Shown: piece by piece, positions 1 to 63,304 of the stretch
How positions within the stretch are numbered: position 1 is the first letter of the stretch
How the letters are laid out: every line of letters begins with the position of its first letter
Program-made: the position numbers and the translations under genes
From: Gracilariopsis chorda
Lineage: Eukaryota > Rhodophyta > Florideophyceae > Gracilariales > Gracilariaceae
Length of the DNA stretch: 64,000 nt
Assembly: GCA_003194525.1 (NCBI GenBank)
Contig: NBIV01000275.1
Location: 48,868-112,867, forward strand
Reading direction: 5' to 3'
The notes under the pieces: generated by a model
Told to the model about the DNA's origin: nothing
What the model saw: the letters and a program-made list of their open reading frames with translations, nothing else
Database searches by the model: none

Positions 1-2
1 TC

Positions 3-1462
3 AATTCGGTCACGGTTAAGGATGTTTATCCTATTCCAAGAATGGATGAATACATCGACTCCCTTGGGGTTGCTACTGTGTTCACTACCCTCGATGCGAA
101 TTGGGGTTATTGGCAAGTTCCTATCAGGAAAGAGGACCGAGATAAGACGGCTTTCGTATGTCATCAAGGATTGTTCCGGTTTCGGAGAATGCCCTTCGGG
201 CTTACGAACGCTCCTGCTACCTTTCAAAGGGCAATCGACATACTGCTAGCTCCATTCAAATGGAAAACGGGTCTTGTTTACCTCGACGATATAATCGTTT
301 TCTCCAATACCTTGGATGAGCACTTATCCCACGTTCGGGAAGTAATGAAGGTACTGCGCGACGCAGGTATAACTCTGAAACTCAAGAAGTGTGAGTTCTT
401 TACCGATTCGGTGAAATATCTGGGTCATATCATCCGTCCCGGAAAGCTTTTGATCGATCAAGTGAGAGTCAATTCCTTGAAGGAAGCGAAGCACCCAACT
501 ACTCAGACTGAGCTGCATTTCTTTCTAGGATTGTGTAACGTGTACCGTCGTTTCTTTCCGAGCTTTGCGGAGATTGCTACACCTTTGAACAGGTTACTGA
601 CCAAAGGTCAACCAGTCCAACTGGGCCCTTTCGGGTACGCGGAGTCATCCGCTTTCACGGAATTGGTGAATGCCGTAACGTCCCCACTGATTTTGGCATT
701 ACCCACTCTGGATCTTCCATATGAAGTCGATACCAACGCTAGTGCTAACCAAATTGGTTTTGCGTTGTTTCAAACCAATGAAGATGGTGAACGACACCCC
801 ATCGGGTTTTGGTCGCGATCTCTAAACGTGCATGAACGTAATTATTCCGTCTTGTAGAAGGAGTGTCTCGCCGTTGTGTGGGCACTCTCTATTCTACGAC
901 CCTATTTGATGGTGTTCACTTTACCGTACATACGGACCATTCCTGCCTCCGTTGGCTTATTGAAATTACCAAACCGTCGGGCCGGTTGATGCGTTGGTGT
1001 CTCCGACTGTCGGAATTTGATTTCAATATCCTGTACAGGAAGGGTACCCTGAACACCCAGGCGGATGCGTTATCCCGTTTGGGAACCAATTCTGAAGCAC
1101 TGCCGACTACGGACTTGGACATACAATGTTTTATGGTGGAAGACTTGGATGACGGAGCCGAAATCCTTTTGAATGATATATGTGACGACATTCTCGTCAC
1201 AAGAGATGTAGAACCACCTATTGGTTCGTTTATACCAATTACTCCGGAGGAGTTAATACGTGAGCAACAGACAGATCCGTTCTGTACTAAGATCCGTGCT
1301 CGCCTCAATGGAGGATGTCAGATACCGTTTTCGGTTAACGATCAAGGCTACCTTGTCAGGTTTGGTAACTCGAACCCACAAATCGTGGTGCCTCACTCAC
1401 TACAGCAGCGAAATCTTCACTTTTCACATTATGTGAAGGGTGGCGCTCATCCTGGTGGATGA
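3..1462 (+). pseudogene. pol: gypsy A pol: reverse transcriptase and RNase H (broken)
   Basis: The frame opens at base 3 with the RT fingers/palm region (PIPRMD, DANWGYWQVP, FGLTNAPATFQ) and the catalytic YLDD near base 280, followed by the thumb/connection (YLGHII) and RNase H (FWSRSLNVHERNYS, TDHS..RWL, ADALSRL). A TAG at 855-857 ends the first frame where copy B reads EKE, and about 55 bases later one base is missing near 912, moving the reading frame. In RNase H the usual first catalytic Asp (VDTDSS in copy B) reads VDTNAS here. The second frame continues into the linker and the start of the HHCC finger and ends at a TGA (1460-1462) in place of an Arg codon. RNA-dependent DNA synthesis would have been its role. 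Confidence 0.92.
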
Positions 1463-3085
1463 AAACTGTATCTCACATTGAGAAGGGATTTCTACTGGCC
1501 AGCTATGGCATTCGACTGCTACGTAGTGCGCCGTTGATGTACAGGATGTGCGAAGAATGACGTTAAGCTACGCAAATACTCTAAAGAGTTAACGTTATTC
1601 CCTGCCAGGGCACCGTTGGAATTCGTGGCCATCGATCTCCTCGGAGAACTGATTAGAACTCCCCGCGGGAATCGGTACCTATTGGTAATCACAGACCGAT
1701 TCTCCAAATTGGTTCGGACAGTTCCGCTCAAGCGGATTACGGCAAGTATTGTTGCGAAGGCGTTCGTCACCCATTGGGTATTCGTTTATGGACCACCCGT
1801 ACAGGTGCTTTCCGACAACGGACCTCAATTCACGTCGAAGTTCTTTCAAGACGTTTGCCGAATCCTGGATATAAGGAATCTGTTTGTAACAACGTACCAC
1901 CCTCAGGGTAATGGTCAGGTGAAAAGGTTTAACCGAACGATGCTTAACGCATTACGGTCCTACGTTGCGGATCAACCCAAAGATTGGGACCTGTACACAG
2001 ACGCAATCACATATGCGTACAATACCCAAGTGCATAGGGTTACGTCTTTATCACCATTCGAACTGGTACTGTCGCGTATACCGCCGCCGGTTTCTATTGA
2101 GGCACAGCCAACACTGGCAACTTACCCCTCGCCGGGTTTGTATCGCGAATCCTGGAAAGGATGGCTAAAGAAGATGGTTCCGGTTGCACGGAAAACTATG
2201 GCAAAGGCGCAAAACGCTTACAAGCGTAACTTCGATCAGAAGATTCGGAGACCTTTACCGGAAATTCGGGCGAACGAGTTTGTCTTCCTTCGAAAGGAAT
2301 ACTACAATCCTCAGAAGGAAGGTCACCATAAGCTTTCTCCAATCGTGGATGGACCCTACCGTGTGGTATCAGTCGCACAGGACACTGTCGTGTTGGACAT
2401 TAATTCTCAATATGAGAGGATATCACGCGACCGCGTTACTCGGACACCCAATCCAAATCTGGAAGTGTTGAACTCACCTACATTCCTTTCAGGGAATGCT
2501 GACACGGTTGACCAGCCTTCTGGTAGTGGAAAGCCGCGTCCGGCAATTCTTCCGCACCCGGATCGCGGAGTAACTGATCTGCCGCCTACCGCTTCCAACA
2601 ATGGAAATGCTGACCCACTACTCCCCAAACGGGTTCGGCACAACGACTGTCAGAGAGTAACACCCCCACAGGAGGTTGTCAGCAGACCCCTGGCTCCGCC
2701 TAAGGAGGGGGAGGAGAATACCGTTTCGGTTTCGGCGTCGCCCGCTGCAACCACGAATGGTAACGCCCCTGCCGAAGAGACAGTTGTCCCTACTGGGAAT
2801 TCGCTGCAAACTAGCACATCACGCGATGGCACCGCAGAACCGGTAAGGAATAACGGCAGAAGCAATGAAAACGGTCCTGCAAAGGATGATGAACAGAACG
2901 ACGAAACAAACCAATCTGGTAACCTGTCAAGTGATACTTCTCGCATGCGCGATTGTGCTATTGCGTCACCGAAAAAGACGGTCTCCGAAGACCCAAATTG
3001 GGTAGTGTCGGCCGACCCGCACGCGGGAGAACTCGATGGCGAGGACGGGGATCCAGCTTGGAACGACGTCTGGAACTGGGAGTAA
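1463..3085 (+). pseudogene. gypsy A integrase with long C-terminal linker (broken)
   Basis: After the TGA at 1460 the finger continues (RRDFYWPAMA) and another TGA interrupts it before CTGCAKN. The core is open from about 1616: first Asp in AIDLLG, second in SDNGPQF, but the third catalytic residue, normally Glu in GQ.ERFNRT, is Lys (GQVKRFNRT), so this integrase could not cut or join. After the core come the GPY/F-type region (DGPYRVVSV) and a hydrophilic Ser/Pro/Asn-rich tail of about 200 residues (PKEGEENT is shared with copy B) ending at a TAA at 3083. The linker joins integrase to the chromodomain found further on in another frame. Confidence 0.9.
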
Positions 3086-3602
3086 GAGAACTCCGAAGGA
3101 GATGCGAAACCATGATTGGTGGACAATTGGACCGTGAAGGACCCGCTCAGGGTGTGCATTACGTCATAACGCGGTGGCGTGCGCTCGCGCTTTCGAAATG
3201 AATGGCACTCCGTGACTCCCTGCCGGGAACGGACAAACCCTAGACGGGCACGTGCCAGAGATGTGGCGCGCAAGCGAACCTTCCGGCCAATCGGATGTTT
3301 TGGAAAATTCCCCGTGGACCGGTGGTCCGCCGCCCTTGCACAGGGAGTGTAGAAGAGGTGCACCACCGTCAGAACGGTCTTCCCGCTGAAGCGGTTTATC
3401 GCCTGAATTGCCGAAGCTACTGTTCGTCGGTTAGGACTCCGTTACGGAAGAAACAATACTTCCTGGACTCAGGAAAGCGAGACCTTCCGAGTGAACCCAT
3501 TCGGGTGACGTTTGCTCTCCGCTAACGGAAATTACGCCTTCTCTGTCACGACGGATACTGCACAATCACCGTGGTGAGCGACGCGCTTCCGAGACCGGAA
3601 TA

Positions 3603-3902
3603 TTGCCGCCAGGCACTCTGAAGCTAACCACAGTGGTTCTATTGCCTCTCCCTTCGCCAGAGATGGCACGGGAAAGTTCCAAACTGGATTTCTACCACAT
3701 GGAGTTCGTGGTTGAACGCATTGTGCGTCATGAAGCTACCCCGGAGGGTGAGTGGTTCTATCAAATCCGTTGGTACGGATACTCTCCCGAGGACGATACG
3801 TTGGAGCCAGTCAAGCACCTCCCGAGGTCTAAGATCATATCCTATCACCGACGGATGCGGTTGGCTCTACCTCCAAATTTGGATGAAGCAGTAGTTGGCT
3901 AA
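3603..3902 (+). pseudogene. gypsy A chromodomain
   Basis: A segment of about 60 residues near 3700-3890 matches chromodomains: EFVVERIV, then FYQIRWYGYSPEDDTLEP, then HLPRSKIISYHRR. The aromatic Trp and Tyr of RWYGY are kept, but the Trp normally found in DTWEP is Leu here (copy B has Trp). In chromoviruses this domain sits at the integrase C-terminus and steers integration to marked chromatin. It is separated from the integrase frame by 3086-3602, where I see only broken linker sequence, so it can no longer be made as part of pol. Confidence 0.85.
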
Positions 3903-4198
3903 TCCGAATCCGGAAACACTACGTGACGACGATGGTCGTTCTTGGGGAGACTCTCGCGAGTGCGACTTATGTTGGAAGGGGAAACAAGAAGGGGAATACC
4001 GGAAACGGTTCAGAACAACAAACCGGAAACGGTTACAGAAGCAGGGATACTGAAGAAATTGGATCCTGGAATAGGAAGAATGAAGTGGAAAGAAGATCTC
4101 AGAAGAGAAGAAGAAGAAGCGAAGAATTACCACTAGCTGGTTGTACTAATTCACAAGTCTATCTGTCTACCGCAAGGGTCGCCGTCACCATCAATTGG

Positions 4199-4579
4199 TT
4201 AGCCACCCGTACTGGGTCCGGCTCCTGATGAGGCTCCCGCTCCGCTGGGCGGATTGGTTGGACCTACACCAAAGTTGGCGGCGAACGCCAGCATCTGGTC
4301 GATATCCGTCATTGCCGGAGGGAGCGGGACCCCGAACCTTTGCAAGGTTTGTCGAAGAGTCGCAGCTTGCGGCGTCAATACCGGCCCCGGTTGCGAAAGA
4401 ACATTCCAGCCCGTTGGAGCTTGAGAACCTGCCACAGGTGTTCTTTCGGTCCCGCCGACAGCTATCCCACCAGGTGGTACGGCCACGAGCGGCGCAGACG
4501 ACCCAATGGGTAATTCAGGCTCCTCCGTCACTGTTGGATCATCCCAATCCACCGGAGGCTGGTACTCATTGTGGAACAC
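4199..4579 (-). CDS. Antisense reading frame in gypsy A 3' region (fragment)
   Basis: On the strand opposite to pol, between chromodomain and 3' LTR, a frame of about 126 residues is open. It aligns loosely with the C-terminal part of the much longer antisense frame of copy B (60645-62411): an acidic block (DDPTVTEEPELP versus DDPMVDNEPEEP) and a helical stretch (ATLRQTLQRFGVPL...MTDIDQMLAFAANFGVGP versus the B region ending LAYRLAGGYAP). It starts on GTG with an in-frame TGA just upstream, so the N-terminal part is gone. Function unknown. Similarity between two old copies is the reason for not dismissing it as a chance frame. Confidence 0.5.
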   Translation of the reverse strand: MFHNEYQPPVDWDDPTVTEEPELPIGSSAPLVAVPPGGIAVGGTERTPVAGSQAPTGWNVLSQPGPVLTPQAATLRQTLQRFGVPLPPAMTDIDQMLAFAANFGVGPTNPPSGAGASSGAGPSTGG

Positions 4580-4729
4580 GAACCCTCACGGGTGACCTAC
4601 GGGAACCGAGATCAGTTGGCTCAACATCCCCATGGCATGAGCTTGGGAAACACCCATGATGGGAGTCGTACTATATATACGCTTTCGCGTCACGTGAAAT
4701 TCCGCGTCGCGGTGTGGCTTTCCCGGCTT

Positions 4730-4742
4730 AAGAAGGGGGAGA
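4730..4742 (+). promoter_or_regulatory. Polypurine tract of gypsy A
   Basis: A run of purines (AAGAAGGGGGAGA) directly abuts the TG that opens the 3' LTR. This is the expected position for the primer of plus-strand DNA synthesis. Copy B has a comparable tract at 62473-62480. Confidence 0.75.
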
Positions 4743-5699
4743 TGTGGAGCAACGCTTTCCCGTCGGTTGGGAGTTGTTCCTATTCATAGTAATATCCACT
4801 GGTGGATTGGTTCGATACCTCATTTATGAGTTGATCCCTCGCGGGATAGCGATGAGGTGGCACTTGAGGGACCTGGACAGGTATTACTAGTGGCATTCTG
4901 GTGACAGATGGTACGCTGTACGCGTGTGGTAATTTCGGTTCCAATTTTGGATATTTAATTTTATGGTTATCGCCACTTGTGGCCCAGAAAGTGGGAACTC
5001 CACGTGTATGGACCTCAAGAGGTGTGCACCAAATTAGTTAATTTGTTTAGTTTACTGTGGTGCAAACCTACTTAGGTAATCACAGCCTCGCCGTCCGCAC
5101 CAACAGTAAATGGTAACCTTGGTTCTCTTTCGAGATATACTCTTTGCAGAGTAAGGCTCTTGTAAGAAAGGCCCTCGTAGGGATAATGACTCCTCGTGGA
5201 GAGTATCCACGAGTGGATTCCGTCTACCATCCCCTTGGGAACATTCAGGCGTCACTACTGCTACAGTATCACCGTGTTCGGTATTGGTTATTTGTTCCAC
5301 TGTCAGTCTTGGATTCCGCCCCAGTATTGGGTTATTCGTCGTGGTTTTTACCACATTCCCGTTTGGGATTCGTTCTTTATTTTGGTTCGCCCCGTCGCCG
5401 TGTCTGTTGCCGCGTGTTGCACGCCCCGTCGCCGGTTCTCTTGGGTTTCCCCTTTTTCATTTTGCTTTCCTTCACAGGATATCGTGTCATTATACACTCA
5501 CGTGTGTACCATCCGTCCCTGGAGTTTACCCTTCTTCTGGGCCATTCCCGAACCTCTGAAGGTATAGCCAGAACCACGTTGGTCTTACAAGCCAGCCTTT
5601 ACGTGGCGCAGAGGGCTCTCTCAACTGAGACACCATCCCATAGGCAGCGAGGTCTCGAACAGCTTGAGGGTACTTCCCGCTTCCGGATTTTGCTCTACA
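4743..5699 (+). repeat. 3' LTR of gypsy A
   Basis: It begins TGTGGAGCAACG right after the purine tract and ends TTGCTCTACA, an imperfect inverted match to its start, giving TG...CA termini. Its 957 bp compare with 804-910 bp for the related LTRs at 45668, 46911, 51646 and 62484, whose ends follow the same scheme. The right border is fixed independently because a copia gag frame runs up to it on the other strand. Long open frames on both strands inside it are by-products and not genes. The 5' partner is outside the window, so no target duplication can be tested. Confidence 0.8.
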
Positions 5700-6255
5700 C
5701 AACTTGGTCATGTTCTCTATCGTTGGCGTCTGCGAGTAGCGTGATAGCCATAAGAGAGTCTGGTAGAGTTCTGAGTAAGCAAGCAGTTCTCTCCTTATCG
5801 TTGAGAGCATCTCCTAGGCGTGCCAGTTCTAGAAAGATTGTTTCCATTTCGTGGAGATGTTCAAGGATATATCCATCGTTCTTGAAAACGAGATTGTTCA
5901 GGCGCTGTCGAAGGGTCATCTTGGTTTGGATGTTATCCTTCTTGTACCTGCGCTCCAGTTTTCTCCAGACGTCCAACGCAAAACATTGTTCGCGTTCCAG
6001 TAATTCAGAAACGGCAACTACTGGTTGTGTTCCAAGGTTTTGAACAATAATCGAACGAGCTTTTCGACCCGCATCATCCCATCGGTGGCGGGCTTGGGCT
6101 GAGCTCTCGCCTTCCAATGGTCTGGGTTCGGTTAAGACGAAGAGAACTTGGTCAACATTCATCAGGTCCCTTATGTAGATCCTCCATGTGTAATAGTCCG
6201 AGGATCCTTTAAGGCGGGAAATAGTGCACTTGCCTTCTTCTCTGTTCTCACTCAT
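5695..6255 (-). pseudogene. gag: Ty1/copia gag (UBN2-type), truncated by the gypsy LTR
   Basis: The product starts MSENREEGK with an ATG at 6255 and follows the copia gag-polypeptide pattern: Y.TWRIYIRDLM, W.DAGRKARSIIVQNL, ALDVWRKLERRYKK, LRQRLNNLVF, EHLHEMETIFLELARLGDAL, LLRTLPDSL. About 185 residues are left. The zinc knuckle, protease, integrase and RT expected downstream are absent because gypsy A occupies that place from 5699 leftward. The terminal stop codon is formed by the LTR end itself (the TAG lies in the LTR). Upstream (6256-6700) should lie its leader and 5' LTR, but I could not fix LTR ends there. Confidence 0.82.
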
Positions 6256-46910: not shown

Positions 46911-47820
46911 TGAAGTGCAATCCTCGAGGAGGAAGACTCAGCGATGCCCTGTGCACTTGATGTTTTTGCCGCTTTCGCGTGTTTATGATTACTACCGCTA
47001 TTAGCGGGTGTCTCAGCCCTCAGCGGATCCGCACTGTGCGCCAGGTGCACACCTGTGCATGCGCCGTGTGCCGCCCAAGGCGTGATTGGACCACGTGAGA
47101 CACGGGTAGTCAAGAGGAGGTTGGCACCACAGTGTGGACATTTAGTTAACTTATATTTATTATTTATTATTTATTATTTATCTACGCTACAGTAGGGAGA
47201 TTACTACACTATATAGTGGCTCGGCGACCTCGCCCTGACAATGAGTAAACTTCCCCAACCAGTGGTTCTTGGCTCTAAGTCTTTTCCGCTTTCGCGAGTC
47301 TTCTACGCTCCTCGGAGGTAAAGCCGCGTTACTAACGGTAGACCTATCCACCCTGCGTCACTAGGAGTATCACCACCTTGGGCACTTGTCACTTAATTCA
47401 CCACCGCCGTGTTCTCGCCCCTGTATAGGGTTCCTTTGTACCTTTTTCCGTGGTCCCGTTGGCCCACACCCCCGTCGCCCCCAATCGGGCATCCCCCGTA
47501 TTTCCCTTACCCCACTCTCGTGGTTTCTACCCTTTTGTGAGGTTGTTCGTCACCGCTGACGCGTGTCTCTCGTGCCAGTATCCTGTGACGTCTTCCCCCA
47601 CTTACGTGGACTCGTACTACTTGGAAGGGCTGTTTTCCCATTCGTGGTGATCCTAATCCTACCGTTTCAACTCTCCCCGCTTGGCGTGAGGGTGAGCCTC
47701 GGCTTTACAACCCGACTTCGTCGTGCTCATCCGGAGAGGCTCCGTTCGCTGTGTTACCCTCCAGAGAGAAAGATTCCGAACGTCTTCGTGTGTTGTCCCG
47801 CTTGCGGGTATTGCACTACA
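46911..47820 (+). repeat. Solo LTR 2 (gypsy B-like), sense orientation, TSD GATGT
   Basis: Runs TGAAGTGCAATCC...TTGCACTACA and aligns along its length with the LTRs of gypsy B (for example the A/T-rich TTATTTATTATT block and CTCCTCGGAGG versus CTCCTTGGAGG). GATGT is found at 46906-46910 and 47821-47825. It is a second, independent insertion into the same Tc1 gene, in the opposite direction to solo LTR 1. Confidence 0.95.
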
Positions 47821-47986
47821 GATGTACGCCAACGGAAAGCAGTTTGAAAATGTTGAGGATTTGAAGGAGTCCATGGTCACTGTTTGGCGCAGTTTAACGG
47901 CACATTACATGCAAAAGCTCTTTCGATCTATTCCCAAACGTCTCTTGGCTGCGATGGACAAACGTGGCAGTGCTACAAAGTACTGA

Positions 47987-51390: not shown

Positions 51391-51645
51391 GCTTCAAGTT
51401 GTGCCCGCCAGGGTAAACGGTGTTCTTGTTTCTGTGTCTCATGGCAGCAGAATCTTAGATTTTACCCATGTCTTTGACTTTTTCCAGCCTCTTTTTTAGT
51501 GCTTCGAATTGCGCTGGTGAGAGGGTTAACCCTCACAAGGGTTTAATTTGGCAGAGAAAAAAATGTTAAAATAGTTGTTTCTTCGACAGATTTGGCGGTA
51601 CTCATGACATGCACAAAAACTACAAGTGTTCAATTTGGCAGGATC

Positions 51646-52449
51646 TGAAGTGCAACGCCCTCAGGCAGGGATTCTGGGTACTTGAACGCTTTCCCGATAT
51701 TATCGGTTGTGTAGTGTGTATATGAACTACGCCCCACTATGGTGGATATGGAAACGTGGGACACGGTTTTGGGTCAATTGGCGGTTGGCCACAGTAGTGG
51801 ATGTTGCCACGAAATGTGGAGTATTTTAGTTAATATTATTTATTATTTTCACACCCATTTCTGGGAAGCTAGTACTTAGTGCGACGGCGCACTGCTGTTG
51901 CACCAGTAAACCTTCCCCAAGAAGGGACCCCGAACCTGGGGAATTGGCTCTAGTTGTTGCCGCTTGCGCGCGTACTCTACTCCTCCTTGGAGGGAAACGC
52001 CGTAAACCACGGGACATCTAACCCCCTTGCACATCTAAAGGGACCCATCACTGGGAGTATAATTGTTCCAATTGCATTGGTGTTTCGCCCTGATAGGGAT
52101 ATTGTTACCGGCATCGCCGTTCGTCCCCGTCGCTCTCGCGACTCACTTCGCCTTTCTTTTTCTCCTTTTTAGGGTAGCACCTCCCGCTATCCGCGGCCCT
52201 CGTGTGCGCATCCGCTCACACACCCCCACTTACGTGGAAACATACCTCTACTGAGGATCACACCCCGCTCACGCGGATACCGATTCTTCGCCTTCACCTC
52301 CCTGCGCGAGTCGCGACAGGTGTCCCTGGTCTTACAAACCGGCTTCGCCGTGACACATCTGGGAGGGCTCTACCCAACTGGGTTCACCTCGTGAGAGGAA
52401 GATCCCGAACGTCTTTCGGTGTTTTTCCCCTTTGGGGCATTGCACCACA
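51646..52449 (+). repeat. 5' LTR of gypsy B
   Basis: 804 bp, TGAAGTGCAACGCC...TTGCACCACA. It matches the 3' LTR (62484-63304, 821 bp) along its length with scattered differences and small indels. It contains a chain of small stem-loops (CCTCC-tt-GGAGG at 51982-51993, CCCC-ttt-GGGG at 52427-52437). Confidence 0.93.
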
Positions 52450-52452
52450 AAG

Positions 52453-52470
52453 TGGTCTCCTGACTTAGAA
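52453..52470 (+). promoter_or_regulatory. Putative primer-binding site
   Basis: TGGTCTCCTGACTTAGAA begins three bases after the 5' LTR. TGG is the complement of a tRNA CCA end, as expected for first-strand priming. Which tRNA cannot be told from the window. Confidence 0.5.
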
Positions 52471-52554
52471 TCGTTTTTTGTTTTCCCTCTTACGAGGTTT
52501 GTTTTTATTTACCGGAAGTTCCGTGATCGTTTCCCATCGTAACGGTATTTTCTC

Positions 52555-54730
52555 ATGTCGAGAAATCCCTCCGACGCGGAGCCAGTGGTTACGCGTAGTC
52601 GCTCCCGCGACAACGCGGACACTTCCGAAGTTCGGTTCGTACCCCGTATCCCCATACGGACAAGTTCCAGCCATGCTGGCGCCGCTTCATCGCGGAATGA
52701 TACCCCCGACCGGGAACCCCGGAACCTCCTTTTGCCCTCGTTATCACCCCCGCAGGGGAATGCAGCATCGACTCCGGCTGTTGCCGCAGTGCCCCAGGCA
52801 CCCCGGCCTGCTCCCGCTGTCACGGCTTCAAGCCCCCGTGGAACGGGCAATAACAACCCCCCAGGGGACTTCCCTGGAACCCCAGGTCCACGATCTGTGG
52901 ACCGCCCATTACACCCTTGTAGGGGAACTAAAATCCCTCCAAGAGGTGGTCTCGGCAACCCCCGTAAAGGAGGTCGCCGAGGAACTCCGTATTTTACGGT
53001 CTGACGTCAACTCCGTGTTGGAGAGTTTGGGACAGCCCGCCACCTTCATCGAAGGAGTTGAAGCCCGATTTGATCGGATTGGTGCCCGCCTGGAGACGCT
53101 GGAGCAGTTCGTCCTCATGGACAAACCATCCCCGGGTGATCCGGTAAACGAGGCATCGCACAACGACCAGCTTGCTGGGAAGAAGAAACGCCGTCATCGA
53201 CGGAAACACCACCGAAAATATTCGGACTCCGATTCTTCGACATCGTCGGACTCATCCCGAAACCATTCGGTTAGCTCGAGCTCCTCGGACTCCGACTCGG
53301 AGGACGAGAAGCGAGGCTACTCCTCCCACTCGAAGCGGTCATCGGCCACTGAAGGTGTGGTCCGAACCCGCCAGAAGGGGAGAAGACACCCCGGTCTCCG
53401 GGAATTGAAACCGACAAACCCGGATTACCGGAAGCTTTTATCATACCGGTACTACCGGCTCGAAGATTCGTCACTTGGACGTAGGCCCCGTGGTACGGGA
53501 AAGGTGCGAGAATGCATTAAGCGAATGCAGCTCTCGCTCCGCAACCAGTATTTTACTGGAGAGGACCCAGTCCTAGTACTGGATTTCCTATCCCGCTTTG
53601 TAGCGGAGGCCGATATCCTCGGTATGAATGAGGGACAAGCCTATTTGGCTTTACCGTATTTCTTACGGGGAGTGGCGGAGGACCAATACACCTCTGTCAG
53701 AGGATCTTCTCGCGCCTCCGAGGGAGGAGTTACTTGCTGGCCGGAGGCTGTGCAGTATCTTCTGCGCTCCTACGCCACCAACACCGCTATTCAGCAGGCT
53801 ATCCTCGCTTTGCGAGATACACGCCAGCGTGCTGGAGAGACCGAGACCGATTACTCGGTGCGCCTTAACAAGGCTTTCCACAGATGTGGTAACGTATACC
53901 CCGCTGGGGAGCGCAGTACCATGTTCATCGATGGTCTTGACCCGGCAATCCGGAGTTTAGTTACCCGTTATCGGGAGGACAAGCGGAGGATCACCTACCT
54001 CGAGCTGGTCCAACACGCTCGAGCAGAAGGGGATGCACTTCGTGCAAGAACTCCGAACAATCGGTCTAAATCCGCCAAGGTGTTGTTGCTGGAAAGCGAA
54101 GCTTCCTCTCTCCCGCTCACCGCGGATGGGAACCCTGGACAGGGATTTGATACCGTGCATTTAGTGCAGGGGGATGGTGTGTCGATACCCACCAGTGAGT
54201 TACCGTCAACGACGGAGATGACCCATGATACGGGAACAGAAGATCCCGTTCTATACGGTGGTAACAGTCGGGTTCAACCCCAACGACTCCCGTTTTCAAA
54301 CGGTCAATCCCATTATCAACGGCCTGGATGGACTGACACCCGCCCTGCGGTTCGCTTCTCCGATACTCGGAATAATAATCCGCGTGTCGCGGTGCTGGCT
54401 CTCATTTGCCACCTGTGCTATGCCCATGGACATACCTCTCCTCATTGTATTTGGTCACTGAAGGATATGGCCAAGGTGGTGGCAAATTACGAGGCCCTCA
54501 CTCCAGAGGAGAAACGTTCCGTCCCGACGGCTTCCTACCTCCGTGCTAAAACGGACTTTTCCCACGCCCTACCACAGACCCCGCGTGGGCGGCAAGCTTC
54601 ATACACCCCGATTCGGGAGATCACGCAACCATCCGTTGCAACCCCCGCTTATGCGGATAGAAACCCCCGTCAACGGGATGAAGCACTCGTTGTCGACGAA
54701 ACCAACCCACCGCCGAAGGCGGAAAACTAA
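52555..54730 (+). pseudogene. gag: gypsy B gag with CCHC knuckle
   Basis: The ATG at 52555 (MSRNPSDAEPV) opens a Pro/Ser-rich N-terminus; this frame ends at 53004, while the rest of Gag is open in another frame (from before 52890 to 54730), so a frame change lies in the Pro-rich part. Then a coiled part (ELKSLQEVVSATPVKEVAEELRILRSDV), a Lys/Arg/His and Ser/Asp tract (KKKRRHRRKHHRKYSDSD), the capsid-like retrotransposon gag domain (YLALPYFLRGVAEDQYTSV, WPEAVQYLLRSYATN, FHRCGNVY), and one CCHC knuckle CHLCYAHGHTSPHC. Forms the particle and binds RNA. Confidence 0.88.
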
Positions 54731-54747
54731 CTGAGGGAGTCTCCCCT

Positions 54748-55740
54748 TTGGGAGAGGCGTCCTCAAGAACGAGGCTGTTGGCGCCCGAGGCGTCCTCGCC
54801 TCGCTCCCCGGTGAAAGTCCTCTCGAGGAAAGACACCGCTGACGCGGACTCTGCGCACCTCGGTGTGTTGCGTCGCCCGTGGATACGGAGTAAAAATCCC
54901 CGGATTCCCGGTAGAGTCTTGGTCTTGGCCAAACGCAATTATAAGGTCTATGCCGACCTTGGCCTTGATCCCCAGTTTATGGTGAGGTTTCTCACCGTCC
55001 TGGATACAGGTGCAGGCCCCAACTTCGTTGTGGAATCATTGTTACCCCCGCTTGTGCGGTCGCGTATCCGCTCTGACGCGGTCCCCGACATTTCGGATGC
55101 GAACAACAATCCGTTACAAACGGTGGGCACAGTGGACCTCTTCGTGAGACTTGGTACCTCTGTGGTGAAGTTGGACTTCATCGTTTGCCGTTCATTGGCA
55201 GCACCAGTCATACTGGGATGTGATTACTGCGACAGATTCGTCGACGCAATCAGGCCCCGCCTCAGGCGTGTAGAACTTGACGACGGATCGTCGGTTCCGA
55301 TTGTTCGCCGCCCGCTAAAGCGGTCCTCTCGGAAACAAGTTCCGCTCCCTGCTGCGCAGGAACCACCGCCCGCGTCCGGCGAGTCCACCAAGCTCCGCGT
55401 CGCTGCCTCGGTTTCTATACCGGCTGAGTCCCAAGTCTGGGTGCAGGTAAACTCCCGTCAACACGGTTTTCGGGTTATACAACCCCTCGCCTCGTTGTAC
55501 GAGAAATCCCAGCTGGCGCTGGCTAATGGAATTGTCTCCATTTCCCGGGATGTTCCTTTCCGGATATTGGTTGCCAACCTTGGCAAACACCCCCAGTATC
55601 TGGTAAAACACCAAGTAATGGGGAGTGTAACCCCCCATCCTATGGGAATGCTGCCAACAAAGATGACAGCCGCCGATGTACTCGGAGTTACCACCTCTTC
55701 TGAGGAGTTCGCCCCGCCGTCCGAAGACGTCAAGTCTAGG
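54748..55740 (+). CDS. gypsy B aspartic protease
   Basis: A frame opening 18 bases after gag, in a different phase, has the protease signature LDTGAGPNFV (catalytic Asp near 55000) and ILGCDYCDRF, followed by a region of unknown function (LRVAASVSIPAESQVWVQV...), which resembles the post-protease segment of other chromoviruses. The frame formally runs to 55992, but after about 55740 the RT-linked sequence is in another phase. Would process Gag-Pol. Confidence 0.8.
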
Positions 55741-57340
55741 GAGGGGAGGAAACCGCTACTTCAGCGTCGAACATACCGAGTAACTCGGAATTGCGAACCA
55801 CACCTGTTCCACAGGACAATGCTCCATCGAGCAACGACCGGATTGATCCGGAAAAAGCACTTGAAGCGCTGGACTTCAGCCACGTGCCAGAGTCGCACCG
55901 CGACAAACTCCGTACTATGTTACCGTAATTCACCACAATGTGGGATGGTTCGCTTGGCGAGATTAATGCAACGGAACACCGGATCGATTTAATCCCCGGT
56001 GCGCGACCGGTTGCACAACCCCCTTACAGGGCAGGTCCGAAAGCTCGGGAAGAGGAGCAGTCCCAAGTGGACAAGATGCTCCGCGCAGGTGTGATTGAGC
56101 CCGCTCAATCACCCTGGGCATCCCCAGTTGTACTGGCTTTAAAGGCCGACGGAACCTGGAGGTTCTGTGTCGACTACCGCCGGCTCAATGCCGTGACTGT
56201 TAGGGACACGTACCCCATCCCTCGTATGGACAAGTGCATTGACTCCCTTGGAGACGCCACCGTGTTCACGGCCCTTGATGCCAATTGGGGATATTGGCAA
56301 GTACCTGTCAGACAGGAGGATCGCGACAAAACCGCATTCACCTGCCATGCAGGAACGTACCGCTTCAAGCGGATGCCATTTGGGTTAACCAACGCCCCCG
56401 CCACCTTTCAGCGTGCAGTAGATATTCTACTCAACCGCTTTAAGTGGCGGAGTTGTCTGGTCTACCTTGATGATATTATCATCTTCTCCAACTCGTTGGA
56501 CGACCATCTCACTCACGTCTGAGACGTGCTGACCGTACTCCGCGATGCGGGAATTACCCTCAAGTTGAGGAAATGCGAGTTTTTCACAGATACTGTGAAG
56601 TATCTGGGTCACATTATCCGTCCTGGACGGTTAGCGATCGAGAACGCTCGAGTCAAATCCCTCGTTGAGGCGAAAGAACCCCGTACGCAAACGGAACTGC
56701 GCTCCTTTCTGGGGCTGGTCAACGTCTATCGACGGTTTATCCCGAACTTTTCGGATACTGCAGCGCCCCTGAACGCGTTGTTGCGAAAGGGGAACCCCCC
56801 AAAACTGGGAACATTTACGCCCGAGCAATCGGAAGCTTTTAACTCCTTAAAGGAGGCTGTCACATCAGCACCAATCCTACATCTCCCAAAACTTGGGTTG
56901 CCATACTCCGTAGATACGGACTCGAGCGACTACCAAGTCGGGTGTGCTCTTTTTCAAACCACCCCCGAGGGGGAACGACATCCAATTGGTTATTGGTCAC
57001 GTTCGCTCAATGTTCATGAGCGGAACTACTCCGTATCGGAGAAAGAGTGCCTCGCCGTCGTATGGGCGATGACCACTCTGCGCCCCTACCTTATGGGAAT
57101 TCACTTCACCGTGTACACGGATCATTCCTCATTGAGGTGGTTGATGAATATCTCCGACCCGTCGGGACGCCTCATGCGCTGGAGACTCCGCCTCGCGGAA
57201 TATGACTTTCAAGTCATTTATAAAAAGGGTGCGCAGAACACCCAGGCCGACGCTTTGTCGCGGTTACCCACAAGTGGGGAAGCCCTCCCAACGGAGGATG
57301 ATGAAGTCCCATGCTTCATGGCTATAGACCCGGTGATCCG
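55741..57340 (+). pseudogene. pol: gypsy B reverse transcriptase and RNase H
   Basis: The frame picks up near 55780 (NSELRTTPVP), is broken by TAA near 55927, then runs through the full RT (AGVIEPAQSPWASPVVLALK, FCVDYRRLN, DANWGYWQVP, FGLTNAPATFQ, YLDDIIIF). TGA at 56521-56523 interrupts DHLTHV-DVLTVL; the same frame goes on to YLGHII, connection, and RNase H with its first Asp kept (VDTDSS), EKECLAVVWA, TDHSSLRWL and ADALSRL. Near 57330 the phase changes again. Confidence 0.92.
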
Positions 57341-58640
57341 GAATATGCCGTTGAGGCTAGGCCAGAAACCTGGGACGATGATGCTGATTTTGACGAACTA
57401 CTCGCATCGCGAGATGAATCTGAGAACCCGTTACCGGGAAACTTTGTACCGGTATCACCGGAAGAAATGATCCGAGAACAATTCGGCGACCCATTCTGTG
57501 CGAGAATTCGTGCCCGTATCAACGGTGGTGAAGATCTCCCTTTCGGGGTAAACGACAAAGGCTACCTCGTAAGAAAGGTCGAAGCCCGCCCACAGATTGT
57601 GGTACCACATTCCCTGCAATCGCGGGTGTTACATCTATCACACTACGCCCCCATTGGAGGTCACCCAGGTGGGAGGAAACTCTACGTAACCCTGCGAAGG
57701 GATTTCTATTGGCCCGCCATGGCTGTGGATTGCTACGCAACCGTGCGGCTCTGTAGCAAATAGGCGAAGAATCGCGTGAAACTCCGCAAAAATGCGAAGA
57801 AGATGAAACTATTCCCCGCAAGGGCGCCGCTCGAGTTTATTGCGATCGATATTCTCGGACCACTACTCACCACGAAACGTGGAAACAAGTTTCTACTTGT
57901 CATTACCGACCGCTTTTCTAAGCTGTACGGACTGTCCCTCTTCGGAGGATAACCGCTCTCACGGTGGCCCAGGCTCTGGTGACGCACTGGATTTTCGTCT
58001 ACGGTCCCCCTGTGGAAGTGCTCTCCAATAACGGGAAACAGTTAGTGAGCAAGTTCTTCCAGGATGTTTGTCGCATCCTGGATGTCAAGAACTTGTTCAC
58101 GACTACCTACCACCCCTAGTGTAATGGGCAAGTTGAACGGTTTAACCGGACGTTACTCGCGGCTTTACGTTCCTACGTCGCAGACCACCCAAAGAACTGG
58201 GACATGTACGCTGATACGGTAACCTACGCGTACAATACGCAGGTACACCGGACTACCGGAGTTTCGCCATTCGAGTTGGTTCTATCTAGAACACCCCCGC
58301 CTGTGGCGCTGGAACCCCAAGCTACCTTGGACAATTTCCCATCTGTGGGTATCTACCGGCAGCAATGGAAGCAATGGCTTTCCAAGCTGGTCCCCGCTGC
58401 GCGGAAGTCTATGGCACGGGCCCAAGCCGCTTACAAGCGGGATTTTGACGCTCACTTGCGAGGAAAGACCCCCCGACTCAGGCAAATGACTACGTCTTCA
58501 TCAGGAAGGAGTACTACAACCCGGAACGGGAGAAGCGTCAAAAACTCTCGCCTGTGGCGGATGGACCCTTCAAGGTCATCTCTGTTAACACCGACACTGT
58601 CGTGGTAGAGATGGGCGACACGCACGAACGGATTTTCCCG
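57341..58640 (+). pseudogene. gypsy B integrase
   Basis: HHCC finger: HLSHYAPIGGHPGG..., then C-pair damaged by a TAG at 57761 (LCSK-stop-AKN). Core: first Asp in AIDILG, frame slip near 57925 before the LRRI segment, second catalytic Asp replaced by Asn (SNNGKQ where copy A has SDNGPQ), TAG at about 58119 in the HPQG region, Glu kept (GQVERFNRT). C-terminal GPY/F-like part follows in other frames to about 58640. Inactive on several counts. Confidence 0.88.
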
Positions 58641-60073
58641 TGATCGTGTTGTCCTTGCCCCTCCTCCCTCGTCAGAGGTAGTCCTGGATCCAGGCAACCC
58701 CGTTTCTACGGACTCTGCAACACCGGAACCATCCGGGAGTACTAGACCTACGGTACTACCAAACCCCAGCCGGGGACTCTCAGACCTACCGACTCTGTCG
58801 GACTCACCGGCTCAGCCCGGTAATTCGGGCCCCTCAGCGCCCGCCCCTACCACGTCTGCCCCACTGGCGCGCATCTATACCCGCCAGGCGGGGAATGTTA
58901 TCCCTTATCCCGCCGCTCCGTCTAAGGAGGGGGAGGAGAACACTCGTTTTCGAGGAACGATATCGCCGTCGCAACGGGAAACACACCGTAACATACGGAA
59001 CACTGACCGTGGAGCAACGGAGTATGTCACGCGACACTAATCCCCGTTCCCGGGCAGTGCTGCGCAACAGGAACCAGACGCGCAGGCCCCGCAAAAGCGG
59101 CAAATACACCGTTTGTCACGGGAAAACGAGAAGCCTCACTCCAATACCGCAGCAGCGGAAAGGCAATCGCCCAATCCATCCCCTGAGGCATCGTCACAAA
59201 CGCGGAAAACATACCGTGCTACACGGGAAGTTGAAGCGCAACTACCGCACACCCCTGTCAGGGAAGGATCCCCGATAAGGGAGTATGGTGACGATTGCCC
59301 CCAATCCCTGAGCAGGGCGATGCCTCGAAGCCGCCGTTGGCTGAAGTCCCCGCGGAAGCGGTTCAATCAGGTCGATCAGACCCGCGCCTTGCGGAGAAGG
59401 GGCGCCCAGATACGCCGGCCTCACAGGGAAATACCCATACCCCTCTTGGGGAAAAAGGCAGCCAAGCCGCAGTTGAAGCTTTAAGCCCTGGCTCGCAAGC
59501 ACCGGAAATGCCTCCCGTCGTTGACGGAATCGAAGCCCCCGCTACGGGGAATAATTTGCGCCAACCCCCGCATCGCTGCGGCGACGAACCGAGGAACTCG
59601 GGAAAAACGCGCGCCATCGCACGCTCGAAACCGGTCGTACCGGACGCTGCTCCTCCTCATGGAGATGGTGCACCGCGCTTAGCGGCAATTTCCCTGAAAA
59701 GGGTATCATCGGCACCTGCCCGGCACCCCCCAAAGGGGAATTTTGACCAAAATACCGGTGTACCGGAGTTAGCCCCAGGCAACCCGTCAGTAGCCGGAGA
59801 CACCACGGCATCGCCGGAACGTATGGTGCAGAGCGCTCGTGCGCCTGGCAGGGAGGCGGTTTGCCACCCAATCACCGTGTCGCACGGACCCCCCAGGGGA
59901 TTGTGGAAATGCCGATCCCGCAGGAGCGGTCATCTTCCCGCAAACTCGCGATTCGTGAGCTCAAACCGCGAAGGCGGAGCCCAAGTCCCCCGCCGACTGG
60001 CGGTTCGCCCGCAATACCGCGAAAAGCGGAAATGAACCTACCCCAATGGGGAATGACTTGCTGGTGAAAAACC
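58641..60073 (+). other. Pro/Ser/Arg-rich linker between integrase and chromodomain
   Basis: About 1.4 kb in which broken frames encode low-complexity sequence. PSKEGEENT near 58918 matches PPKEGEENT of copy A, so this part belonged to the integrase tail. The DNA shows recurring GGGAAACACACCGT-like words and many CCGC/GCGG stem-loops. The linker is much longer than the corresponding part of copy A (about 2460-3680). Confidence 0.6.
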
Positions 60074-60454
60074 GTGGCACCACACACCCTCTTGAGGGAT
60101 ATCTTCCCGCATGAGCAGCGGCCGCTATCACAGCGCAAGGCAACGCCGGAGTTATCGTCGAACACCCTGCTAAGGGACATTATACCGCACAGCGGGCAGC
60201 CCCCGCAAGGAAGTACAACCACCACCCGGCACGGCCGGCAGGTCTACGAACGAGAGTTCGTAGTAGACCGACTTGTCGGACACACCTGGGACCAGGATGG
60301 TATTCTACAATACCACGTCCGCTGGTACGGGTACGACCCCAGTGGGGATACGTGGGAGCCAATTGAACACCTCCCACGGTCGCAGGTCCTGCGATACCAC
60401 CGTCAAACGGGAACTGCAGCCCCAGCCACCCTGGTTAATGCCCAAGTTGGGTAA
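60074..60454 (+). CDS. gypsy B chromodomain
   Basis: An intact chromodomain at the end of pol: EFVVDRLV, YHVRWYGYDPSGDTWEPIEHLPRSQVLRYHR, then a short tail ending NAQVG (copy A ends DEAVVG). Aromatic cage candidates are Phe of EFVV, Trp and second Tyr of RWYGY. In chromoviruses it guides the integration complex to chromatin marks. The ATG at 60074 is in frame but probably not a true start. Confidence 0.88.
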   Translation: MAPHTLLRDIFPHEQRPLSQRKATPELSSNTLLRDIIPHSGQPPQGSTTTTRHGRQVYEREFVVDRLVGHTWDQDGILQYHVRWYGYDPSGDTWEPIEHLPRSQVLRYHRQTGTAAPATLVNAQVG

Positions 60455-60644
60455 CGTTGCCGCGCGAGCGGAGAGCGAAAGGAAAGGATAACAAGACAAG
60501 GTCCGTCGAAGACGGGGAACTCAACCGAGAAGCACCGTTCTAAACGGAATGTTTATTCAAGGGAGCAGCTAGCTCCCCACAATACTACACTACACTAACT
60601 GGCATAGCCAGGGAAAGAAGAACCAGGAAACTGGACTAGAGATT

Positions 60645-62321
60645 TCACTCACCCCCATCGTCCGGGGCGTAACCCCCAGCAAGGCGGTAGGCCAACTCGT
60701 CCGCCATGGTGGTGACATCCCCCGATACCTCGGCAGCGCTAAGACCGGCACCCCGGAGGAAACGTGCGATGATTTCGTTTTCATTCGCCGTCACCCCGCT
60801 GGGGATAGAAAGTCCGGCACTTGCCGCCGAAGGGTCAGCAGCCGGCTCGGCCGGAGACACCCCCTCTTGGAAAGCTTCCGCGCTAGCGCCGGTCTCCTCT
60901 ACGTCCATCTCCCCGGGTTCTTCCGGTTCGTTATCCACCATTGGGTCATCCCCGCCGTATGCGCGGTAGTAGTCGTCAGAATCGACGTACCCCACCGGGT
61001 GGTCTTCCGGCACATGCCGGGGCGTATCGCGAAGCTCGCGCGCCTCCTCGGAGGAAATTTCCCGGAACTCCCAGGGGTCGAAGTAGATAAAATCCCCCGC
61101 AAGGGCGGTGTTTCTACCGAGTCCCGGACCACCGGTGTTACCGCTACCGCCATCCAGACGACCGCTTTGCTCCAGCGGGACCTCACTCCAGCTAACGCTG
61201 TCGATGTACCCAAGTAATTGGAGGACCTCTTCATTGTTGGCCTGGCCCCCAAGGGGGATGCGAAGATCCAGGTTTGGGATCGCTGCCCGCACACGCGGTT
61301 GAAGGAACCAGAGACGATACTGGTCGTACGCCTCGTTGAGGATATAAGCCGCAGTGCGGGCCGCCCACTCCGTAACCACTACGGACCACAACCCCGACCG
61401 GGGATCCTGCATGAGCAGCGAACCGAGGTACCTAAGTACCGGCGGGAGTTCTATGTAGCACCCCAGCAGGCTTCATGGAAGCGCCACCACTAGGGGAGTG
61501 CTACATACCGACCTAGTCGGTGAGGCGGCGCAATCCGCTCTATCTCCACGTTCTGATACGGGATAAAATACCCGAATCGGGATCGCCAACGCCGCTCGTA
61601 GCGGATGAAGTTTTGGAGAAAGTTGGACCGGTATTGCCGGGGAAGGTACCTGAACTCCGCCCGAATAATCGGTCGCTCCCAGCAAAAAGCTTCTTGCCGC
61701 GCTGCGAGAAAATTCCTCCAAGCGAGGGTCTCGAGGCGGAACAGGTTCTCGCCGTACCCAATCTCCCCGCGAGTGCGGAAATAGCTAACGTCGAAGCCAA
61801 ACTCCGGTGGGACCGGTACATCGAATGGAGCCCGGCTCTGCCGTTGGTACGCCATGCGCGTCAACGCGGTCTGCGCTGCAGCGACGGTCTCGCCCAAATT
61901 TCTTCGGAGGTGGTGACGCGGAATCGCAATCCGGTGACGCCAATCCTACGACGTGGTGACTGCTCTGGGCAGATCCCCCGGAAGGGTGCCTGAGCCATCC
62001 GCAAAGCGGTGACCAATCCCTCATTGAGGACAGCGACCGGGTGAAACCACGGGGCAAGGCGCAGGCGCGACGCGTGATTCTGATTCATCGGGTTGAGCCC
62101 ACCAGGGTGTTGTAGGTTGGCTAGTTGGACACCGGAGTGGTTCCGGAGGACATCACCGAAGGTGGTAGTGCGAAGGGATGGTCGGCTGCAGCAGCCATAT
62201 TCCCCGGTTGTACCGGATTTCGATCGCCCTGAGGCAGGGGAACTGACCGGAAACCGGTGGTGTATCGCCTGAGAAGTCTCGGAGGTTGGCTTTGGTTATT
62301 GATGTTGTTGTCGTCGTTCAT
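60645..62321 (-). pseudogene. Long antisense reading frame of gypsy B (unknown protein)
   Basis: Read on the minus strand from an ATG at 62321 (MNDDNNINNQ), frames follow each other with slips near 62130, 61920 and 61480: a Pro/Gly-rich head, NPMNQNHASRLRLAPWFHPV, QTALTRMAYQRQSRAPFDVPVPPEFGFDV...FIRYERRWRSRFGYFIPYQNVE, then MQDPRSGLWSVVV...LGYIDSVSWSEVP, an acidic part with EEPGEMDVEE, and a helical C-terminus (LAYRLAGGYAP). About 560 residues in all, no membrane span or signal peptide. Copy A keeps the C-terminal part (4199-4579). No family recognised. Antisense extra frames at this place are known in some plant Ty3/gypsy lineages (Retand, Grande). Confidence 0.6.
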
Positions 62322-62472
62322 TTCTCCCTTGTCGAGGGTGGCTGTTGTTGTCGTTTGTGTGCCTTGTGACTCTGGTGCAGAGGGATTACCGGAGAACCGG
62401 AGACAGAGCACGCGCTTTTATCACCCATTTTCGTCTGGGAATCCTCCGCGTCCGCGGTCGTTTTCCCGTCTT

Positions 62473-62480
62473 AGGGGGGG
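62473..62480 (+). promoter_or_regulatory. Polypurine tract of gypsy B
   Basis: AGGGGGGG three bases before the 3' LTR, the expected primer position for plus-strand DNA synthesis. Confidence 0.7.
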
Positions 62481-62483
62481 ATA

Positions 62484-63304
62484 TGAAGTGCAACGCCCTC
62501 AGGGAGGGATTCTGGTACTTGATCGTTTTCCCGATATTATCGGTTGTGTAGTGTGTATATGAATTACGCCCCACTATGGTGGATATGGACACGTGGGACA
62601 CGGTTTTGGGTCAATTGGCGGTTGGCCACAGTAGTGGATGTTGCCACGAAATGTGGAGTATTTTAGTTGATATTATTTATTATTTTCACACCCATTTCTG
62701 GGAAGCTAGTACTTAGTGCGACGGCGCACTGCCGTCGCACCAGTAAACCTTCCCAACAAGGGACCCCAACCTGGGGAATTGGCTCTAGTTGCCGCTTGCG
62801 CGCGTACTCTACTCCTCCTTGGAGGGAAACGCCGTAAACCACGGGACATCTAACCCCCTTGCACATCTAAAGAAGCCCATCCTTTGGAGTATATTGTTCC
62901 AATCATATTGGTGTTTCGCCCTGTATAGGGAGTCCTGTCCACCGGCATTGCCGTATCTGTTCGTCGCTCTCGCGACTCACATCGTCCTCTCTTCCTCCTC
63001 TTCGCCCTTCCTTTTTCCCCTTTTTAGGGTAGCACCTCCCGCTATCCGCGGCCCTCGTGTGCGCATCCGCTCACACACCCCCACTTACGTGGAAACATAC
63101 CTCTACTGAGGATCACACCCCGCTCACGCGGATACCGATTCTTCGCCTTCACCTCCCTGCGCGAGTCGCGACAGGTGTCCCTGGTCTTACAAACCGGCTT
63201 CGCCGTGACACCTCTGGGAGGGCTCTACCCAACTGGGTTCACCTCGTGAGAGGAAGATCCCGAACGTCTTTCGGTGTTTTTCCCCTTTGGGGCATTGCGC
63301 CACA
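62484..63304 (+). repeat. 3' LTR of gypsy B
   Basis: 821 bp, TGAAGTGCAACGCC...TTGCGCCACA; same family and layout as the 5' LTR, with a few substitutions and a small insertion near 62990. Beyond it the pogo-type frame on the minus strand begins at once. Confidence 0.93.

What the first reader, a model, noticed from the sequence alone, without database searches (positions are those of the whole stretch)
51646..63304. Gypsy family saturated with perfect mini-hairpins that covary between copies on the same codons
Short perfect stems occur about every 20-40 nt through coding DNA. Within 392 nt of RT I verified eight, including TGATTGAG/CTCAATCA (56092-56111), CTGGG/CCCAG (56114-56127), GAACC/GGTTC (56152-56165), TGCCAAT/ATTGGCA (56279-56299), CCTGT/ACAGG (56304-56316), GATGAT/ATCATC (56469-56483). 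Copy A shows hairpins at the same codon centres with different arms: ACCGA/TCGGT (402-412) versus TTCACAG/CTGTGAA (56583-56599), both centred on the third base of the same GAT codon; ACGAT/ATCGT (286-298) versus GATGAT/ATCATC; GCGGA/TCCGC (639-652) versus CCGA/TCGG (56821-56832); CCGCT/AGCGG (1724-1735) versus CCTC/GAGG (57937-57948). Four of four checked keep the centre while bases change, mostly synonymously. Either RNA (or cDNA) structure is selected along the whole genome of the element, or its reverse transcriptase repeatedly corrects imperfect palindromes by template switching. I know of no described element like this.
Basis: partly seen in the sequence, partly recalled or inferred. Interest (0 to 1): 0.95.

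Follow-up and report, generated by a model that had tools for sequence, protein, structure and literature searches.

The report
Retrotransposon packed with selected mini-hairpins
A group of jumping genes in a red seaweed genome carries short, perfectly paired hairpins along its whole length, about three times more than chance, and evolution has kept the paired bases while the loops drift, which hints at a dense built-in signal whose reader is not yet known.

Summary
Element B (51641-63304), a Ty3/gypsy element of the chromovirus kind, probably from the red alga Gracilariopsis chorda, has 610 stems of 4 bp or more (loops 1-7) against 286 expected, 239 of 5 bp or more against 74. The excess stops at the element's ends, covers both LTRs and the coding parts, survives synonymous-codon shuffles (z about 11), and is absent from the Helitron ORFs, three Copia loci and two distant gypsy families tested. 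The stems look like true hairpins: loops 3-5, random bases inside the loop, Watson-Crick pairs. Over the element's last 4 kb, differences between two subfamilies hit stems at 0.32-0.47 of the local rate (p<1e-8); mutations private to one copy, measured in pol, hit stems freely. Compensatory changes are few. This fits purifying selection on hairpins in a single-stranded stage and argues against template-switch correction. 'Same centre' is overstated: 3 of 4 examples hold, but over all A-B stems it is 8 against 3.7 expected. Likeliest role (unproven): dispersed binding sites for the element's own nucleoprotein.

The parts
51641..63304 (+). Element B, Ty3/gypsy element of the chromovirus kind with mini-hairpins along its whole length (degraded copy)
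   Evidence: LTR pair, Pfam RT/RNaseH/integrase, stem excess per kb and per part
51641..52449 (+). 5' LTR, 28 stems vs 7.2 expected
52478..54730 (+). gag-like ORF with one CCHC knuckle and a basic Ser/Arg-rich stretch; 77 stems vs 21.7
   Evidence: 31 homologues, some with a retrotransposon gag Pfam (PF03732; name recalled)
54748..60450 (+). pol region in broken frames: RT 55938-56522, RNase H 56526-57470, integrase zinc part 57311-57763, disordered linker and, by alignment to L072, a chromodomain near 60.26-60.40 kb
   Evidence: chromodomain seen in L072, window position from the offset, approximate; stems 114 vs 37.3 (54748-58830) and 52 vs 15.5 (58831-60450)
60830..62471 (-). Region of an antisense ORF that is 566 aa long in subfamily copy L072 and broken here (borders approximate)
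   Evidence: 60480-62450 has 55 stems vs 20.4
62479..63304 (+). 3' LTR, 29 stems vs 7.1; stems nearly unchanged from subfamily G2
56092..56111 (.). Example hairpin (9 bp, 2 nt between arms, so 8 bp with a 4-nt loop)
56583..56599 (.). Example hairpin (7 bp, loop 3), same centre as 402-412 in copy A
1..6000 (+). Copy A: part of a related gypsy family (about 64-71% nucleotide identity to B) with its own hairpin register (one mostly A/T pair outside CC); cut by the window start, right border approximate

Best explanation
A clade of Ty3/gypsy elements in a Gracilariales red alga carries several hundred 11-14-nt hairpins per element. SHOWN by computation: mostly 4-5 Watson-Crick pairs closing loops of 3-5 nt; C-rich 5' arms with a family-specific register of a CC..GG clamp; in B a sense-strand A next to the hairpin; stems resist change between two subfamilies while loops and linkers drift. 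INFERRED: they work in cis while the element is single-stranded (sense genomic RNA and/or minus-strand cDNA), and selection acts through the transposition cycle, because mutations private to one copy hit stems freely. INFERRED, less sure: they are dispersed binding or nucleation sites for the element's own nucleoprotein (Gag is the first candidate), in the manner of the multiple packaging signals of ssRNA viruses. I put the first part (real, selected, single-strand hairpins) at about 0.8 and the binding-site role at about 0.45.
For: Sharp element borders and excess in LTRs, gag, pol and antisense-ORF region. Synonymous shuffles z about 11. Loop 0 and loops of 6 and more near chance for arms >=5, inner bases of 3- and 4-nt loops pair at random, 0.24 and 0.25. 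Inner pairs strictly Watson-Crick given CC..GG: 1204 vs 653, G.U and other mismatches 0.64-0.77. CC-N9-GG 306 vs 150 but GG-N9-CC 185 vs 148, though both would be about equally stable (recalled). Family-specific registers; sense polarity in B: A after the hairpin 136 of 244, T before it 38 of 244. Stem differences 23 vs 72.5 and 35 vs 75.2 in 59.2-63.3 kb, while singletons in pol are 123 vs 113.9. Trait limited to one gypsy clade. MS2 and Qbeta, whose RNAs are structured, show a like but weaker signal, x2.08 and x2.10 against x3.06.
Against: No protein or RNA experiment. Loops carry no motif, unlike the known MS2 packaging signal (passage). Folding-energy z is modest, about -0.4 to -1.1, on both strands. 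Sense polarity is clear in B only. In pol the stratified conservation is weak, 0.81 and 0.78, and the neutral baseline (singletons) was measured in pol, not in the region of strongest conservation. B's own two LTRs also differ somewhat less in stems (6/205 vs 40/597, p 0.054; 9/218 vs 37/584 the other way, p 0.31). Few compensatory changes. No other species' DNA could be examined.
Confidence: 0.45

Rival explanations
1. Generic structure selection: hairpins formed in both complementary strands keep sense RNA, antisense RNA and cDNA from annealing into long duplexes, or compact the RNA, as in leviviruses; no specific reader protein is needed.
For: Watson-Crick without G.U preference, as expected if both strands must fold; MS2 and Qbeta show the same lack of G.U excess (1.07, 1.00). 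Equal folding signal on both strands. An antisense ORF in L072 makes antisense RNA plausible. A paper states that secondary-structure optimisation is needed to prevent longer duplexes in Qbeta-type replicons (PMC6847885, passage).
Against: CC..GG is preferred over GG..CC, registers are family-specific, loop-3 arms stop at 5 bp (9 of 112 longer); stability alone gives no reason for these. Phage arms are not capped and not C/G polar.
Confidence: 0.25
2. Sites read in double-stranded DNA or extruded as cruciforms (chromatin or integrase binding), not in a single strand.
For: CC-N8-9-GG is the same on both strands; Watson-Crick only.
Against: Random 3- and 4-nt loops, complementary but variable inner bases and sense-strand polarity in B point to folding of one strand. 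Arms of 4-5 bp are short for extrusion (recalled knowledge).
Confidence: 0.1
3. Evasion of host small-RNA defence: a hairpin about every 20 nt hides the transcript from guide-length pairing.
For: Centre spacing peaks at 18-20 nt (108 pairs, 1.62 of expectation).
Against: Copia loci and distant gypsy families of the same host lack the array; a fixed CC clamp would not be needed. No small-RNA data here.
Confidence: 0.08
4. Mutational origin: the reverse transcriptase copies one arm from the other (quasi-palindrome correction by template switching) or another unknown biased process.
For: Perfect Watson-Crick arms; restriction to retroelements of one clade. Compensated doubles between families somewhat above slid partners: 176 of 358 vs 116 of 306, B-A 22 of 36 vs 9 of 32.
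Against: Stems are conserved, not turned over fast, in 59.2-63.3 kb; one compensated pair per direction in 59.2-62.35 kb, none in B-G2 LTR comparisons; in pol 3-12 compensated pairs per comparison, fewer than the single breaks in each.
Confidence: 0.07

Closest known systems
Multiple dispersed packaging signals of ssRNA viruses such as MS2 (PMC6281560, passages read)
   Same: Many short stem-loops with a shared recognition feature spread over a genome, in coding sequence too.
   Different: Here the host is an LTR retrotransposon, the shared feature lies at the stem (CC..GG) and not in the loop, density is higher (x3.06 vs x2.08 for MS2), and no protein contact is known.
Levivirus genomes (MS2, Qbeta, PP7) as structured RNAs
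   Same: Excess of short hairpins with loops 3-5; in MS2 and Qbeta no G.U excess.
   Different: Phage arms run longer (7 bp and more enriched), have balanced C and G in the 5' arm, and lower excess. Replication differs.
Ty3 genomic RNA structure (PMC11381356, passages read)
   Same: A Ty3/gypsy RNA with dispersed well-folded regions.
   Different: The passages describe 14 well-folded regions in vivo and undefined packaging sequences, not an array of uniform mini-hairpins.
Genome-scale ordered RNA structure (GORS; recalled, and named in papers listed)
   Same: Selection for structure along a whole genome.
   Different: GORS is defined by folding energy, without a fixed unit (recalled); here energy z is modest and the unit is 11-14 nt with a motif.

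Membership tests
Ty3/gypsy chromovirus | LTR pair and RT-RNaseH-integrase order | tested here: met
   LTRs 92.6% identical; RVT_1, RT_RNaseH, Integrase_H2C2 in that order in B, rve in copy A
Ty3/gypsy chromovirus | chromodomain at the C-terminus of pol | tested here: met
   PF00385 E 1.5e-10 in subfamily copy L072; not tested in the window's own broken frame
Multiple dispersed packaging signals | many stem-loops with a shared motif under selection | tested here: met
Multiple dispersed packaging signals | recognition motif in the loop, as in MS2 | tested here: not met
   loop compositions close to background and loops drift at 0.108
Multiple dispersed packaging signals | specific contact with Gag or coat protein | not testable with these tools
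   no binding data
Genome-scale ordered RNA structure | folding energy clearly below shuffled controls | tested here: inconclusive
   mean z -1.04 (B), -0.56 (A), -0.83 (L002), -0.44 (L006) against +0.12 for 6-22.9 kb, 120-nt windows
Both-strand hairpin selection as in leviviruses | no surplus of G.U over A.C in stems | tested here: inconclusive
   B 0.84 vs 1.05, A 1.22 vs 1.34, L006 1.21 vs 1.17, but L002 1.33 vs 0.93 (L002 77 vs 53.0)
RT template-switch palindrome correction | arm mutations turned into compensated doubles | tested here: not met
   some in pol

The most novel reading that the evidence does not exclude
A sequence-specific hairpin code: an LTR retrotransposon lineage whose whole genome, LTRs and genes on both strands included, is written as a quasi-regular array of 11-14-nt Watson-Crick hairpins with a family-specific clamp, read by an element-encoded nucleoprotein and kept by purifying selection on top of the protein code.
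Probability: 0.35. Interest if true: 0.95.

Novelty: new variant of a known kind. Interest (0 to 1): 0.84.

Why it matters
If true, selection for short hairpins shapes every part of a eukaryotic retroelement, more densely than in the three ssRNA phages measured here and on top of coding constraint. It gives a countable motif for testing how an LTR element recognises and folds its own RNA; for Ty3 the packaging sequences are said to be not precisely defined (PMC11381356, passage).

Tried and rejected
Chance clustering: rejected by dinucleotide and synonymous shuffles. Host-wide trait or composition: rejected by flanks, Helitron ORFs, three Copia loci and two distant gypsy pieces. ssDNA-phage-like need: phiX174 x0.84 and M13 x1.08. 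Codon-level cause: stem centres fall in every codon phase, and LTRs and the antisense-ORF region are affected. Tandem repeats inside B: none found. My first reading that 58.3-62.4 kb is non-coding was wrong: L072 has a sense ORF to about 60.45 kb and a 566-aa antisense ORF; only the LTR is treated as non-coding. My first pol comparison (about 7% vs 12.5%; MK-like p 0.014) is confounded, because G1-G2 divergence in pol is about 1% in the first 2.2 kb and about 25% after; stratified values replace it. Relatives in viral contigs: 19 stretches matched a pattern, none confirmed. Structure prediction of the antisense protein family had not finished at the last poll; nothing is claimed from it. No PDB sequence match for the antisense protein at E<=1. 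Rows dropped: L028, L043, L047 for short overlap; 10 of 56 aligned rows identical to another row where they overlap, some being one place fetched twice.
Full report
WHAT IT IS. Element B has LTRs at 51641-52449 and 62479-63304, 92.6% identical, with RT, RNase H and integrase zinc domains in its frames. A subfamily copy (L072) has a chromodomain at the end of pol (PF00385, E 1.5e-10). Among 120 listed RT relatives the highest identity is to Agarophyton chilense, 90% over 76% of the query. A relative of the element's antisense protein is annotated BWQ96_10156 of Gracilariopsis chorda on a contig of 70,517 bases, the length of contig C355 here. The species name is thus an inference.

THE EXCESS IS REAL. 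Against dinucleotide shuffles B has 610 stems of arm 4 or more and loop 1-7 (286.4 expected) and 239 of arm 5 or more (74.1); copy A 146 (71.7); Helitron ORFs 83 (85.6) and 72 (91.1); 4000-22900 452 (435.4), with a small surplus of arms of 8 or more, 6 vs 1.6. Bins of 1 kb rise to 2.1-4.3x from 52 to 63 kb and lie at 2.45-3.12x in 1-6000. Flanks of B have 8 vs 10.5 and 6 vs 5.9 stems, its LTRs 28 vs 7.2 and 29 vs 7.1. Shuffles that keep protein and codon counts give z 11.1, 12.0 and 11.0; loops of 8-11 stay near expectation there (52 vs 46.7, 43 vs 49.1, 37 vs 30.4).

GEOMETRY. For arms of 5 or more (52450-62478) loop 0 has 8 vs 10.0, loops 1-4 have 30-67 against 8-11, loop 5 17 vs 8.6, and longer loops are near chance. 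Loops 1 and 2 follow from loops 3 and 4 whose inner bases pair by accident: the inner pair fraction there is 0.24 and 0.25. So the unit behaves like a hairpin with at least 3 loop bases. Main classes in B (exact run, first loop): 5 bp/3, 65 vs 8; 4/4, 91 vs 28; 4/3, 60 vs 26; 4/5, 56 vs 27. With loop 3, only 9 of 112 runs of 5 or more in four pooled families go beyond 5 bp, where about a quarter would by chance extension. Centres are rare under 15 nt apart and commonest at 18-20 nt (108 pairs, 1.62 of expectation, six pooled sequences).

MOTIF. The 5' arm is C-rich and the 3' arm G-rich in each of the six sequences measured. In B and L002 CC forms the outer two pairs; in A and L006 another pair, mostly A/T in A, lies outside CC. 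CC-N9-GG occurs 306 times against 149.6, GG-N9-CC 185 against 148.5. Given CC-N7..10-GG, inner bases pair: Watson-Crick 1204 vs 653.5, each of the four types 1.5-2.2x; G.U 0.69, A.C 0.77, the rest 0.64-0.72; loop positions show no clear dependence. In B a sense-strand A follows the hairpin in 136 of 244 cases while T precedes in 38 of 244, with the same direction in LTRs, gag, pol and the antisense-ORF region. This polarity is clear in B only.

SELECTION. Subfamilies G1 (B-like, 35 distinct copies) and G2 (11) differ very unevenly in pol, about 1% over 2.2 kb and about 25% over the rest, so I rely on counts stratified by 200 nt. In 59.2-63.3 kb (end of pol, antisense-ORF region, 3' LTR), one copy of each: stem differences 23 vs 72.5 expected (B's stems) and 35 vs 75.2 (G2's stems), p 9e-13 and 8e-9. 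In pol (L048, L058) 83 vs 102.8 and 68 vs 87.5, p 0.009 and 0.006. Among G1 copies in pol, singletons hit stems at 123 vs 113.9; variants in 2-3 copies 20 vs 26.0 and in 4 or more 9 vs 12.3, neither significant. By position (unstratified, both directions pooled) CC hairpins differ at 0.031, 0.031 and 0.044 in stem positions 1, 2 and 3+, 0.058-0.065 at the flanking base and 0.108 in the loop; hairpins without the CC clamp at 0.067-0.081 in stems. In the LTR, B-G2 stem differences are 4/206, 1/218, 3/212 and 8/212 in the four comparisons, with 6-11% in loops and elsewhere, p 5e-5 to 0.007. Against this reading: B's own two LTRs also differ less in stems (6/205 vs 40/597, p 0.054; 9/218 vs 37/584, p 0.31), which purely post-insertion change would not give; its 5' LTR is further from G2 than its 3' LTR, so the copy may be recombinant.

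NOT COPYING. Template-switch correction should leave compensated doubles. One was counted in each direction in 59.2-62.35 kb and none in the B-G2 LTR comparisons, though 40-50 stem differences are missing. In pol 3-12 compensated pairs were seen per comparison. Between families compensated doubles are 176 of 358, against 116 of 306 for slid partners (sums). Stem centres coincide 117 times against 30.9 over 15 family pairs, B-A 8 against 3.7; part of this follows from conserved amino acids. So the density is kept while most single hairpins turn over between families.

SCOPE. Eight gypsy loci from the RT search, apparently two families, have 2.26-2.76x. Of seven further RT pieces four show 21-25 stems vs 9.7-10.3 (three of these are 99% identical to the two families already sampled), L078 is weak (14 vs 9.3), and distant L076 and L079 (about 46% identity) have 8 vs 9.7 and 14 vs 10.0. 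Three Copia loci are at 1.10, 1.03 and 0.80. The trait appears limited to one gypsy clade; the sample is small.

YARDSTICKS. The same count gives MS2 x2.08, Qbeta x2.10, PP7 x1.65, phi6 L x1.69, lambda x1.35, phiX174 x0.84, M13 x1.08, gypsy B x3.06, A x2.66, L002 x2.73, L006 x2.28; E. coli rRNA x1.17. MS2 and Qbeta lack G.U enrichment as B does, so its absence does not exclude RNA; it fits hairpins needed in both complementary strands. PP7 (1.41), phi6 L (1.25) and L002 (1.33) show some G.U surplus. Phage arms are not capped and have no C/G polarity of the strength seen here.

HOW IT MAY WORK. Shown: hairpin geometry, motif, selection signal, clade limits. Inferred: action in genomic RNA and/or cDNA, and a reader protein, because GG..CC would be about as stable as CC..GG (recalled) and because registers are family-specific. 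Gag, with one CCHC knuckle and a basic Ser/Arg-rich stretch, is a candidate by analogy with packaging signals (PMC6281560, passages). The main rival is prevention of sense-antisense or RNA-cDNA annealing.

LITERATURE. Nine searches of open PMC text listed no paper on a retroelement with such an array; listings were capped at 8-15 titles, and subscription papers and preprints are not held, so this does not prove novelty. Seen: passages of PMC11381356, PMC6281560 and PMC6847885; the rest as listings.

Noticed in passing
L072:2466-4163 (-); window about 60.83-62.47 kb (-): An antisense ORF of 566 aa in a subfamily copy, broken in the window. Five homologues (38-65% identity) were returned, two of them annotated hypothetical proteins of Gracilariopsis chorda; no Pfam match above cut-off and no PDB sequence match.
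   Followed up: partly
22943-26611, 28373-29184, 35431-36344: A tandem array with a unit of about 436 bp and further copies beside Helitron pieces. It has its own hairpin excess without CC..GG: 9 vs 4.6 and 11 vs 4.8 per unit, 29 vs 10.4 in 35431-36344.
   Followed up: partly
45667-46569 and 46911-47821: An inverted repeat (97.9%), 75% similar to the end of B's LTR over about 118 nt, with CC..GG doubled in the first arm (33 vs 16.1) and 25 vs 14.6 in the second: perhaps a head-to-head pair of related LTRs.
   Followed up: partly
pol of subfamilies G1 and G2 (window about 55.03-58.83 kb): Divergence jumps from about 1% to about 25% within pol, which suggests recombination between subfamilies.
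   Followed up: no
51641-52449 and 62479-63304: B's two LTRs differ by about 7%, and the 5' LTR is further from the G2 LTR than the 3' LTR is: an old or recombinant copy.
   Followed up: no
L087 (lambda 1-12000): Lambda late genes show a mild excess of loop 3-5 hairpins (x1.35, z 3.8), not explained.
   Followed up: no
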